A stretch of 64,000 nt of DNA from Planctomycetota bacterium (GTDB lineage Bacteria; Planctomycetota; Planctomycetia; Gemmatales; Gemmataceae), in the NCBI GenBank assembly GCA_029777335.1, contig JAKOSN010000121.1, positions 1-64,000 of the forward strand, in the 5' to 3' direction. Below the pieces are notes generated by a model, which saw only the letters and a list, made by a program, of their open reading frames with translations, was not told where the DNA came from and ran no database searches. The stretch's first letter is position 1, and every line of letters begins with the position of its first letter. This document shows, piece after piece, positions 22,726-27,642 of this stretch. The position numbers were made by a program, and so were the translations under genes.

Positions 22726-22815
22726 TTCAGTGAGCGTCGCCCGAGACGCGGTCGGATGGACTAAAAGTCACGGAAAATCGGAGAGCGAACATCCCCCACG
22801 TTGAGGCTAACTAGT

Positions 22816-24156
22816 ATGGCGCCCAATCCACCCATCCCGAACCTGACACCCGTTTACGTTACCCCAACGCCAGACGCCCCGATCCCCCTCGCGACCGGGC
22901 GATTCGCGATCCAACAGGGATCGTACACCGGCGAAGGGGACGGGACTTTGACGCTCGTCTGGGCGTCACAACCCCGGTTGCGTTTCTACATCCCGTCACT
23001 GGATCCGGTCGGCCTTCTTTCGGCCGGAAAGGCTGTCCTCCGGCACCTGGCCTCAAATGCCGAGGGAGTCGCTCAAGTGACTACCACGCAGCACAGCCAA
23101 GGACAGCCGGACTCAGATCTAGGTGCCCAAGGCCACTTGACCAGGAACATGATCATGGGGGCGGACCAGCCCGCCGATCACGTCATCTTCCACCTGGTCA
23201 ACTTCTGGAACTACGTGAACCCGTGCCCTAATCCGACCCCGCCAGAGTACTACGTTCATCGTCTTGTGTTTGAGGGGGCTGGCTGGCGTGTGACCCTGCA
23301 AGCGGTGGAGAAGGTGAGGGATCTCGTCCGCGATCTGGACGCCGATTCTGGCTATGCAATCACACACGCCGGAAAGGTGGAGAGGGTCGACGGATCATCT
23401 TTCCCGCGGTCGCAAGCTCAAGAATTGTTCTCGGCCCTGTATTACTTTTTCTCGTTCGTGAGGGGGTTTTGGTGCCCCTCGATTCTCTACGTGGCCCGCG
23501 ACGCTGTAGGGACCGAACTGTGGCAGGATTGGACGGTCCTCCCGGTTACTCCATGGACGAAGGTCCTGAGTTGGTTCCCCTCGGACCCCGGCTGTTTGGC
23601 GACCGTCTTCCCAGGCTTCTTGCGCCTCTGGCAGAATCCTGACTGGCAGGATATCCTCCGGGTCGTGATTCATTGGTATGTCGAGACCAACCTTCAAGCC
23701 GGTGCCATCGAAGGGGCCATCATCCTCTGTCAGAACGCGCTGGAACGTCTCGCCTACTACGTATTGGTCCACGACCGTCACGTGCTTCCTGAAACGGCAT
23801 TCCAGCAGGGGGGTGGTATGACGGCTGCCCACAGGCTGCGCCTTCTCTTTACGGAATTCGGCCTGCCTCTGGATGTCGGCCCGAACACGGTCCGCATTAC
23901 CAATCTCCCGGCGCTCGCCGCTTCGCGCAAATGGGATGCGCCTCAAGCCCTCGTTAACCTTCGGAACTGCATCATACACCCAGACCAGCATAACAACCAG
24001 CGCCTGCAGAACTACCCGATCCCGGCCCGGACCGACGCTTGGATCATCGGCTTGTGGTATCTCGACGTGATCCTACTGAAGCTATTCGGCCACACTGGCT
24101 GCTACGTCAACCGCCGCAGCTGCAGGTTTGAGGGTGAAGTGGAGAGTGTTCCGTGA
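22816..24156 (+). CDS. Orphan protein with HEPN-like C-terminal motif (ApeA-like), unknown function
   Basis: 446 residues from ATG 22816, with GAGG nine bases upstream; TTG 22801 would add five. No signal peptide. The N-terminal about 200 residues are beta-rich and carry a Phe/Trp-rich stretch; the C-terminal about 180 are helical (IEGAIILCQNALERLAYYVLV) and end in NLRNCIIHP at about 381-389, an RX4H motif as in HEPN ribonuclease or toxin domains. The two-part layout resembles ApeA-type abortive-infection proteins, but I cannot confirm homology. Neither neighbour is functionally related, and both flanking gaps are gene-free. Codon use looks somewhat less biased than in neighbouring housekeeping genes. 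An antiviral role is inference. Confidence 0.6.
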   Translation: MAPNPPIPNLTPVYVTPTPDAPIPLATGRFAIQQGSYTGEGDGTLTLVWASQPRLRFYIPSLDPVGLLSAGKAVLRHLASNAEGVAQVTTTQHSQGQPDSDLGAQGHLTRNMIMGADQPADHVIFHLVNFWNYVNPCPNPTPPEYYVHRLVFEGAGWRVTLQAVEKVRDLVRDLDADSGYAITHAGKVERVDGSSFPRSQAQELFSALYYFFSFVRGFWCPSILYVARDAVGTELWQDWTVLPVTPWTKVLSWFPSDPGCLATVFPGFLRLWQNPDWQDILRVVIHWYVETNLQAGAIEGAIILCQNALERLAYYVLVHDRHVLPETAFQQGGGMTAAHRLRLLFTEFGLPLDVGPNTVRITNLPALAASRKWDAPQALVNLRNCIIHPDQHNNQRLQNYPIPARTDAWIIGLWYLDVILLKLFGHTGCYVNRRSCRFEGEVESVP

Positions 24157-24942: not shown

Positions 24943-27642
24943 TCACGACTGCAGCCGTCCCATGCGGCGGAGCAGGAGTTTCAGATCGCTGATCACGTCT
25001 TTCTTGCGTTCCGGGCTGCGCGTCGGCAGCAAGAACGCGGGGTGATAGGTGCACAACACGGGGATGCCCTTGTAGTCATGCAGCCGTCCACGCAGGCGGC
25101 CAATGAATTCTGTTGTGCCCAGCAGGTTCTGCGAGGCACATCCCCCCAGCGCCACCAGGTAGCGCGGGCGGACCAGTTCGAGTTGTCGCTCCAGGAACTC
25201 GCGGCAGTTGGTCACCTCGTTGGTCTGGGGGGTGCGATTGCCCGGGGGACGGCACTTGATCAGATTGCAGATGTAAACCTCTTCGCGACTGATCCCAAGA
25301 GAGTGCATGATGCTGTCCAGCATCTGCCCGGCCGCCCCCACAAAGGGAGTCCCCAGGCGATCCTCGTCCGCACCGGGAGCCTCGCCGATGAAACAGATCT
25401 CGGGATCGAGCGGACCAGTGCCAAAGACCGTCTGAGTGCGCGAACGAACCAGCCACGAACACCGGGTGCATCCGCTCACCTGGGCGGCCAACTCGTCCAG
25501 GGCCTGCTGGCGTTCTTCCAGGGTCATCTCGCTGACGGACTTTTGAAGAGGAGTCCCCACGCTCAGGGTGGGCAACGGGACTTTGGGGGCCGCGGGAGGA
25601 GGGGAGGCCGGCACCGTGGCGCGCGGGGCAGCCCCCGGAGTCAACCGATCAAGGTGGCTGAGCACCGTGGCAAAGTCCTGCGGTCGCTGGGCGGGGTTGT
25701 CTTCCAGGCACGCTTCCAGAAGCTCAGCGAGTCCGCCTGGGATGCTGCGCCAGTGACGCAGCAGCGGTTGCGGAGTCTGAAAGAGGGCGTAGCAACAGGT
25801 GCGGGCAAACCCGTAGATGTCCGAACAGGGACGGACGGGAGTCCCGGGGAGTTTGCCCATTTGCTCCGGAGCGGCGTAGTCGAGCGTCCCAGCGATGCTG
25901 CTCCCCACCAGGGTCGCCGAGGTGGCGCGCAGGGTCTCCACTCCGCTGCGGCGCAGAGCCAGACCAAAGTCGATCAACTTCGCCTGCCAGCGCCCACCTT
26001 CCTGACGCACCAGCAGGTTCGCCGGTTTCACATCGCGATGGAGAATGCCGCGCGCGTGAGCCGCCTGTAACCCCTCAACCATCTGCCGCGCCACCTGGAA
26101 GAGATCGTCCACCGGAAGCGGTTTCTCCCGCGCATGATCCTCCAGGGTCATGCCATCGAAGAAATCCATCACCAGGTAGGGGCGTGCATCTTCGGTGGGG
26201 CTGGCAAAGCCGCAATCCTGCAGGCGGATGATGGAGGGATGATCGATCTGACGCAGCAGCTGCGCCTCGCCAAAGACCTGATCGACGTCGCGTTCGAGAT
26301 CATCGCCGGTGAGGGTTTTCACCACCACCTCGGCGTTCATGTACTTGTGCCGACAGAGAAAGGCCACCCCAAAGCCGCCTGCGCCCAGGATGCGCTGGGG
26401 CTGGAATTTATTCATGGGGAAGGGGGAGAAGCGTGCGGGATCGAGCCGAGCCGCCTCGCGGATCTCCTGCAGGGCGGTGGTCCAGTCACGCCGTTCCAGG
26501 GCAGCGCGGAAGGCATTCATGTGCGCCTCGGCCTGCGCCCTGGGATCGCCGACCATCCCCGCCACCATGGCAAAATCAAGCTGGGCGGCCTGAAAATCGC
26601 CGGCGGCCACTTCCAGCTTGCCGATCGCATGAAGCAGAGCCGGGAGTTGCTGGCGTTTCTCCTCGGGGAGATTGCGATAGCGGCCGACCAACTCCTTCAC
26701 CAGCTGGCGCTCGGTGTCATTGCGAATCGACAAACTATCACGCGGCCGCAACTCGGTGTGCATCAGATCGAGGCGTCGTTGCATCTCGACGACGGCAGTG
26801 TAGATGTCGCGCGTCTGTTCGCTTTGACGTTGTTGCTCAGCCTGGATGTCGAGCACCGTGTCGTGCGTGGCGGTCACTGTCACCTGAACGTCCGCGAGCA
26901 TCCGTTCGAGTTGATGTGCTTGCTCGCGGAAGAGCTGATGCAGCCCGGCAAACGCTTGATCCTGCGCCTGGCGGAGCGAGTCGAGCTGAGCAAACGACAG
27001 TCCGCGAAAGAGCTTTTCATCTTCCTCCACAGAGCGACGGAAGAAGTAGCGGGCGGCGATCACCAGGAGCGAGGAGCCGCGTTGGGGCCGAATGGCGACA
27101 AAGGCGGCCAGGTTGACGTGGCCGGCGGTGCGCAGGTCCTCCGCGACCTGGTCGAGCGCGGCTCCCTCGGCTTCCAGAACACTTTGCGGATCGCCAAAGC
27201 GGGCAAAGGCCCCGGCCTGGCGGGCCAGCGCCTCGGGATCCAGACTGCCACCCGTCAACAGGTCGGCCTTGGCGGCGGCGCGCAGTTCCCGCAAACAATC
27301 ATGGCGAAACTGAGTCTTGCCCGAGATCTCCGCCAGCGAGCAACCGTCGAGGAAGGGACGCACCAGTTCGCGAAACGCGCGGTCCTCGCCGGAACTGAGC
27401 ATCACCTTGCAGCGATCCCAGAGCGAATCTCCGGCCAGGGCGACTTCAAGCGTTTTCCATGCCTGCGCATTGGCACGCAGCAGGGCGTCGTTGAGCCGCT
27501 GACTGTTATCCATGAAGCGCTGCGTGAGGAACGTGGCGACCCCCTCGATGGCGCTCGCTCCGGGGGTGCACCCCAGCGCCGAGCAGGCTCCGCCAATCAT
27601 CTGTTGCAGAGCCAGCGCACACATGTTCTGGGAAATACGCAT
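24943..27642 (-). CDS. Ser/Thr protein kinase fused to family-4 uracil-DNA glycosylase
   Basis: 899 residues in one uninterrupted frame; ATG 27642 follows GGGAGGGGGAG. Residues 1-410 are helical with coiled-coil segments (about 230-330) and no membrane helix. Kinase domain about 415-665: GAGGFGVAFL (420-429), ATP-binding Lys 442, HRDVKPAN (535-542), DFG (558-560), GTLDYAAPEQ. After a Pro/Ala linker (about 670-715) comes a complete family-4 uracil-DNA glycosylase (about 716-899): Fe-S cysteines C725, C728, C797 and C813, motif A GEAPGADEDRLGTPFVG from 753, and YHPAFLL from 866. The glycosylase should excise uracil from DNA; the kinase partner or trigger is unknown. In relatives, family-4 glycosylases are normally separate proteins (known to me, not searched). 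Confidence 0.9.
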   Translation of the reverse strand: MRISQNMCALALQQMIGGACSALGCTPGASAIEGVATFLTQRFMDNSQRLNDALLRANAQAWKTLEVALAGDSLWDRCKVMLSSGEDRAFRELVRPFLDGCSLAEISGKTQFRHDCLRELRAAAKADLLTGGSLDPEALARQAGAFARFGDPQSVLEAEGAALDQVAEDLRTAGHVNLAAFVAIRPQRGSSLLVIAARYFFRRSVEEDEKLFRGLSFAQLDSLRQAQDQAFAGLHQLFREQAHQLERMLADVQVTVTATHDTVLDIQAEQQRQSEQTRDIYTAVVEMQRRLDLMHTELRPRDSLSIRNDTERQLVKELVGRYRNLPEEKRQQLPALLHAIGKLEVAAGDFQAAQLDFAMVAGMVGDPRAQAEAHMNAFRAALERRDWTTALQEIREAARLDPARFSPFPMNKFQPQRILGAGGFGVAFLCRHKYMNAEVVVKTLTGDDLERDVDQVFGEAQLLRQIDHPSIIRLQDCGFASPTEDARPYLVMDFFDGMTLEDHAREKPLPVDDLFQVARQMVEGLQAAHARGILHRDVKPANLLVRQEGGRWQAKLIDFGLALRRSGVETLRATSATLVGSSIAGTLDYAAPEQMGKLPGTPVRPCSDIYGFARTCCYALFQTPQPLLRHWRSIPGGLAELLEACLEDNPAQRPQDFATVLSHLDRLTPGAAPRATVPASPPPAAPKVPLPTLSVGTPLQKSVSEMTLEERQQALDELAAQVSGCTRCSWLVRSRTQTVFGTGPLDPEICFIGEAPGADEDRLGTPFVGAAGQMLDSIMHSLGISREEVYICNLIKCRPPGNRTPQTNEVTNCREFLERQLELVRPRYLVALGGCASQNLLGTTEFIGRLRGRLHDYKGIPVLCTYHPAFLLPTRSPERKKDVISDLKLLLRRMGRLQS

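What the first reader, a model, noticed from the sequence alone, without database searches (positions are those of the whole stretch)
24943..27642. Single polypeptide joining a Ser/Thr protein kinase to a family-4 uracil-DNA glycosylase
The frame is continuous and both halves keep catalytic residues: kinase GxGxFG, Lys, HRDVKP, DFG; glycosylase four Fe-S cysteines, GEAPG motif A and YHP. In the relatives I know, family-4 glycosylases are separate enzymes. A kinase coupled to a base-excision enzyme could control repair by phosphorylation or form a damage- or phage-triggered effector; base-excision glycosylases acting in phage defence are known. The helical N-terminus with coiled coil could sense or oligomerise.
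Basis: partly seen in the sequence, partly recalled or inferred. Interest (0 to 1): 0.8.

Follow-up and report, generated by a model that had tools for sequence, protein, structure and literature searches.

The report
Kinase fused to uracil-DNA glycosylase
One bacterial protein joins a signalling enzyme (a protein kinase) to a DNA-repair enzyme that cuts out uracil; the join is real, is shared by a second genus, and belongs to a family of kinases that swap their tail domains, so it may link DNA repair to phosphorylation, though nobody has tested that.

Summary
Window 24943-27642 on the minus strand is one 899-codon gene: a helical N-terminal module of no known family, coiled coil, TPR-like stretch, intact Ser/Thr kinase, Pro/Ala linker and intact family-4 uracil-DNA glycosylase (TIGR00758, 188 bits, cut-off 125). 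It is not an assembly error: a genome of another genus of the same family (G028) encodes the same fusion, with all catalytic residues kept and dN well below dS in both enzymes. Both genomes also keep a stand-alone family-4 glycosylase. Trees of the glycosylase and of the TPR-kinase part each pair the two fusions, so the join probably arose once, by duplication inside the family. It is rare: 2 of 95 family genomes and no other clear case in a phylum sample of 392. The same chassis recurs with WD40, TPR, HEAT, NPCBM, sulfatase-like or GYF tails; here the glycosylase fills that slot. No defence gene or conserved neighbourhood accompanies it, so the phage-defence reading is unsupported. Best reading: an active uracil excision enzyme tethered to a cytosolic signalling kinase, either regulated by it or delivering it to uracil/abasic DNA; the direction of control is unknown. 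New variant of a known kind; moderate interest.

The parts
24943..27642 (-). whole fusion gene, 899 aa, ATG start at 27642
   Evidence: orthologous fusion L047:7669-10455:- in G028
26830..27642 (-). N-terminal helical module (aa 1-271), no Pfam, PADLOC or credible PDB relative; shared with paralogues in the genome and with 41 of 95 family genomes
26428..26829 (-). coiled coil and TPR-like stretch (aa 272-405) that joins the N-module to the kinase
25651..26427 (-). Ser/Thr protein kinase domain (aa 406-664) with K442, HRDVKPAN (from 535), DFG 558-560, APE
25507..25650 (-). Pro/Ala-rich linker (aa 665-712), 36% identical between the two fusions while its neighbours are 73-82% identical
24946..25506 (-). 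family-4 uracil-DNA glycosylase domain (aa 713-899) with Fe-S Cys C725/C728/C797/C813 and active-site E754, E760, F767, N793, N802, H867

Best explanation
The gene encodes a cytosolic signalling-and-repair protein. A duplicate of the family's own stand-alone family-4 uracil-DNA glycosylase was joined, once, to the tail of an N-module/coiled-coil/TPR/Ser-Thr-kinase chassis that in paralogues carries WD40, TPR, HEAT, NPCBM or other tails. The glycosylase domain most likely still excises uracil (or a related deaminated base), and the kinase tethered by a flexible linker acts in cis or on partners at the DNA, so that excision and phosphorylation are coupled: the kinase is brought to uracil/abasic DNA, or its state tunes the glycosylase. 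Shown: single reading frame, intact catalytic residues, signs of purifying selection on both enzymes, orthologous fusion in a second genus, stand-alone copy kept in both genomes, exchangeable tails in paralogues, no predicted membrane segment. Inferred: both enzymes are active, they are functionally coupled, and the N-module oligomerises or binds a partner. The direction of control cannot be read from sequence.
For: Domain and residue checks; every Tth UDGa position that mutagenesis shows to matter (E41, E47, F54, N80, N89, H155; PMC5387724) has its counterpart in both fusions, with A755 at the G42 position as in most relatives aligned. NG86 dN/dS between the two fusions 0.126/1.784 for the kinase and 0.223/1.281 for the UDG. 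Tree pairing of the two fusions for the UDG (100/99) inside the family's stand-alone UDGs and for the CC-TPR-kinase part (98). Stand-alone UDG kept in G000 (L013) and G028 (L048). Exchangeable tails in the chassis family. No hydrophobic window above threshold in P0001, unlike paralogues L009 and L010.
Against: No biochemical data. dS is near or above saturation, so the dN/dS ratios are only indicative. Only two genomes carry the fusion. Domain fusion does not by itself prove that the kinase regulates the glycosylase or the reverse. The N-module has no known relative, so the input signal is unknown.
Confidence: 0.55

Rival explanations
1. The glycosylase domain serves mainly as a lesion reader: binding of uracil or abasic DNA (or the redox state of its Fe-S cluster) switches the kinase on, so the protein is a direct DNA-damage-to-phosphorylation sensor, parallel to paralogues whose tails are likely ligand- or protein-binding domains.
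For: The tail slot in paralogues is filled mostly by interaction domains (WD40, TPR, HEAT, NPCBM, GYF). A separate stand-alone UDG-4 is present to do bulk repair.
Against: All catalytic residues including H867 are kept; a pure reader would be free to lose them, as far as two sequences can tell. No conformational coupling is visible across a poorly conserved linker.
Confidence: 0.25
2. The protein is an anti-phage effector in which the kinase is triggered by infection and the glycosylase attacks modified or uracil-rich phage DNA, in the manner of Brig1.
For: A glycosylase of the uracil-DNA glycosylase fold (Brig1) is an antiviral effector (PMC11078745); kinases occur in several defence systems (PD-T4-6, MADS, BREX PglW; domain-level matches only). 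One N-module present in several proteins of one genome recalls adaptor-type domains of proposed conflict systems (PMC8195603).
Against: No recognised defence gene among the neighbours examined in either genome and no shared neighbourhood; N-module has no PADLOC match; the UDG is an ordinary family-4 enzyme close to the housekeeping copy (about 63% identity), and its active site matches uracil-specific Tth UDGa rather than a changed one.
Confidence: 0.08
3. A neutral or near-neutral fusion: gene duplication placed a spare UDG behind a kinase, and the two halves work independently.
For: Only two genomes have it; linker poorly conserved; Gemmataceae kinases shuffle tails readily (PMC11032199).
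Against: The fusion persisted across two genera with both halves under apparent purifying selection and with 27% protein divergence in the UDG. No ribosome-binding-like site precedes the conserved internal Met 706, so a free UDG product is not obvious.
Confidence: 0.12

Closest known systems
Family-4 uracil-DNA glycosylase (TIGR00758; Thermus UDGa 1UI0, T. maritima TM0511, S. tokodaii 4ZBY)
   Same: Fe-S cysteines, motif 1 GE(A/G)PG, N80/N89/H155 counterparts, whole domain aligned
   Different: Here it is the C-terminal domain of a kinase and lacks the 'LRQHLxSLxAAGVxWL'-type N-terminal motif seen in a good part of the family's stand-alone enzymes
Multidomain Ser/Thr kinases of Gemmataceae and other Planctomycetota (WD40/TPR-tailed; PMC11032199)
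   Same: Kinase followed by a variable C-terminal domain, many paralogues per genome
   Different: Tail is a DNA-repair enzyme, not a repeat domain; no membrane segment
Phosphorylation-regulated eukaryotic UNG2 (reviewed in PMC9266487)
   Same: Principle: phosphorylation changes uracil-DNA glycosylase turnover and partners
   Different: There the kinases are separate proteins and the UDG is family 1; here kinase and family-4 UDG share one chain
Brig1 (antiviral DNA glycosylase, PMC11078745)
   Same: Uracil-DNA glycosylase fold acting on DNA
   Different: Brig1 removes alpha-glucosyl-hmC and many homologues sit in defence islands; neither feature is seen here
UdgX (uracil-DNA cross-linking glycosylase)
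   Same: Same superfamily; TIGR03914 scores 152 bits, below its cut-off of 190
   Different: No GEQPG motif and no KRRIH loop (motifs from the PMC10359453 abstract)

Membership tests
Family-4 uracil-DNA glycosylase | Score above the curated family-4 cut-off | tested here: met
   188.4 bits against 125.3
Family-4 uracil-DNA glycosylase | Four Fe-S cluster cysteines | tested here: met
   C725, C728, C797, C813
Family-4 uracil-DNA glycosylase | Motif 1 GE(G/A)PG, uracil-binding Asn (N80), motif-3 Asn (N89), motif-2 His (H155) | tested here: met
   E754/A755, N793, N802, H867 by alignment to 1ui0 and to the other UDG domains collected
Family-4 uracil-DNA glycosylase | Excises uracil from DNA | not testable with these tools
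   needs an enzyme assay
Hanks-type Ser/Thr protein kinase | P-loop, VAIK-type Lys, HRD with Asp, DFG, APE | tested here: met
   positions 420-425, 442, 535-542, 558-560, 591-593
Hanks-type Ser/Thr protein kinase | Phosphotransfer activity | not testable with these tools
   needs an assay
UdgX | GEQPG motif A and KRRIH loop | tested here: not met
   GEAPG and CRPPGNR instead
Known anti-phage systems (PADLOC models) | Match beyond the kinase domain and co-located partner genes | tested here: not met
   Only kinase-domain matches; N-module alone none; neighbours examined are not defence genes

The most novel reading that the evidence does not exclude
A one-protein bacterial DNA-damage signalling switch: the fused glycosylase recognises uracil or an abasic site and thereby turns on the tethered Ser/Thr kinase, which relays the damage by phosphorylation through a shared N-terminal adaptor present on several other proteins of the same cell.
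Probability: 0.2. Interest if true: 0.8.

Novelty: new variant of a known kind. Interest (0 to 1): 0.5.

Why it matters
In bacteria, damage signalling is usually described through RecA/LexA-type transcriptional control rather than kinases (own knowledge). A kinase and a base-excision glycosylase in one chain, kept across two genera beside a normal stand-alone glycosylase, would give a direct physical link between lesion recognition and protein phosphorylation that can be tested with one purified protein. It also exposes a Gemmataceae-type kinase chassis with an uncharacterised N-terminal module and exchangeable tails.

Tried and rejected
Assembly error or chance frame: rejected by the second fused genome and its conserved start. 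Long open frames in front of other UDGs (G074, G033, G001, and G280, G262, G301, G292, G204, G119, G242, G136): checked; only the UDG part matches, no kinase or N-module match. UdgX: rejected on motifs. A separate internal start for a free UDG (Met 706, conserved): no ribosome-binding-like site in either genome. Profile search of 28 N-modules against PDB gave only chance-level hits, Pfam nothing consistent. The one genome-contig scan with the full protein returned no useful relative. Phage records hold no place that covers most of the query; the hits listed are separate UDG or kinase matches. The AU tests are not usable: duplicate rows (L058, L059) made the first test meaningless and the second did not finish; the fork support (100/99) is what is used.

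Full report
What is there. The minus strand from 27642 to 24943 encodes one 899-residue protein, P0001. The ATG follows GGGAGGGGGAG. [quoted passage not shown] 188.4 bits, cut-off 125.3). Nearest solved relatives of the C-terminal part are Thermus UDGa (1ui0) and T. maritima TM0511. All residues that mutagenesis of Thermus UDGa found important (E41, E47, F54, N80, N89, H155; PMC5387724) are present as E754, E760, F767, N793, N802, H867, with the four Fe-S cysteines C725, C728, C797, C813. The G42 position holds Ala (A755), as in most of the relatives aligned. The kinase keeps its P-loop, K442, HRDVKPAN, DFG and APE.

It is not an artefact. Of 95 genomes of the same family searched with the UDG domain, two carry the fusion: the window's own genome G000 and G028, which is placed in a different genus (L047:7669-10455:-). 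The two proteins align from end to end with identities of 64% (N-module), 76-79% (coiled coil, TPR), 82% (kinase), 36% (linker) and 73% (UDG); NG86 dN/dS is 0.126/1.784 for the kinase and 0.223/1.281 for the UDG (synonymous sites are near or above saturation, so these are indications of purifying selection, not measurements). A peptide of about 20 residues inserted in the G028 kinase between the HRD and DFG motifs is the main length difference. Neither gene lies at a contig end.

Distribution and origin. Both genomes also carry a stand-alone family-4 UDG (L013:903-1742:+, L048:4065-4961:-). In the UDG tree the two fused domains form one group (100/99) inside the family's stand-alone enzymes; in a tree of the coiled-coil/TPR/kinase part they are again sisters (98). 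The simplest history is one duplication of the resident UDG and one fusion before the two lineages parted, or one later transfer. In the order (102 genomes) no further fusion appeared, and in a phylum sample of 392 genomes neither the UDG query nor the full-length query showed one. One search lists only its best matches and one search scored the two best candidates per genome, so a very diverged case could have been missed. Long open frames before other UDGs were checked and are not kinases. Other phyla could not be surveyed: the one genome-contig scan gave nothing useful.

The family around it. The own genome has 141 places that match P0001, nearly all through the kinase, and four further proteins with the same N-module plus kinase but other tails: two NPCBM domains (L009), a WD40-like propeller (L010), an unassigned domain (L011) and a Pro-rich tail (L012); another has the N-module with a vWA-like tail and no kinase (L015). 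In 41 of 95 family genomes the N-module region is matched, with tails that include WD40, TPR, HEAT, NPCBM, sulfatase-modifying-factor-like, GYF and TM2 domains. WD40 and TPR tails on kinases are already described for Gemmataceae and other Planctomycetota (PMC11032199). The N-module itself has no family: 28 members align well (mean column identity 47%, invariant W62, L69, G71, L178, L211) but give only chance matches in PDB and Pfam. Paralogues L009 and L010 have a membrane segment after the kinase; P0001, G028's fusion, L011 and L012 do not, so the UDG version should be cytosolic, where the DNA is.

How it probably works. The glycosylase sits in the slot that in paralogues holds interaction or ligand-binding domains. 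With all catalytic residues kept and a spare stand-alone enzyme in the same genome, the likeliest reading is an active uracil excision enzyme coupled to phosphorylation, with the kinase delivered to uracil or abasic DNA or with the kinase tuning excision (0.55). The sensor-only reading (0.25), an uncoupled fusion (0.12) and a defence effector (0.08) are the rivals. Eukaryotic UNG2 shows that phosphorylation can tune a uracil-DNA glycosylase (PMC9266487), but that is an analogy of principle only. The defence reading lacks support: kinase-only PADLOC matches, none for the N-module, neighbours that are housekeeping or unknown, and a different neighbourhood in G028. No paper found here describes a kinase-UDG fusion; the library is partial, so this is not proof of absence.

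Verdict. As a kind it is a new domain combination within two well-known enzyme families and a known tail-swapping kinase expansion, hence 'new variant of a known kind', interest 0.5.

Noticed in passing
L047 (G028:C81), fusion residues between HRDVKPANLL and KLIDFG: The G028 kinase carries an inserted peptide RMKDEGGRMKEDAPVHPSSFILHPSSG whose two halves look like the two arms of a palindromic DNA repeat; similar peptides (MNEERGTRNEKK..SSFIVHRSS) occur in other frames of the same locus, suggesting a mobile palindrome inserted in a kinase loop.
   Followed up: no
L015:9645-12146:+ (G000:C220), L099:1517-4114:-, L106:1134-3626:-: Proteins of about 830-865 aa that carry the same N-module without a kinase; L015 reads as having a vWA-like tail (TALLVDKSGSM) but L015 and L099 had no Pfam match.
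   Followed up: partly
L095:1692-5435:+ (G028:C263): An N-module protein interrupted by an intein with a LAGLIDADG-type domain (Pfam Intein_splicing and LAGLIDADG_3).
   Followed up: no
L052, L053, L054, L055: Second UDG-like genes in four family genomes (G034, G003, G051, G002) with a GEQPG motif and, in some, a KRRIH/KRRLH loop, i.e. UdgX-like, fused behind another conserved domain.
   Followed up: partly
L013, L048 and other stand-alone UDG loci: Many stand-alone family-4 UDGs of the family carry an N-terminal motif of the type LRQHLxSLxAAGVxWL followed by a Pro-rich stretch; the strict patterns found it in 15 of 35 rows (which include a few repeats). It is absent from both fusions, where the kinase takes its place.
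   Followed up: partly
window 22801-24156 +: 451-aa reading frame convergent with the fusion gene, no Pfam or PADLOC match.
   Followed up: partly
G000 whole genome: 141 places match the query at E <= 0.001, nearly all kinase domains in long open frames: a very large kinase complement.
   Followed up: no
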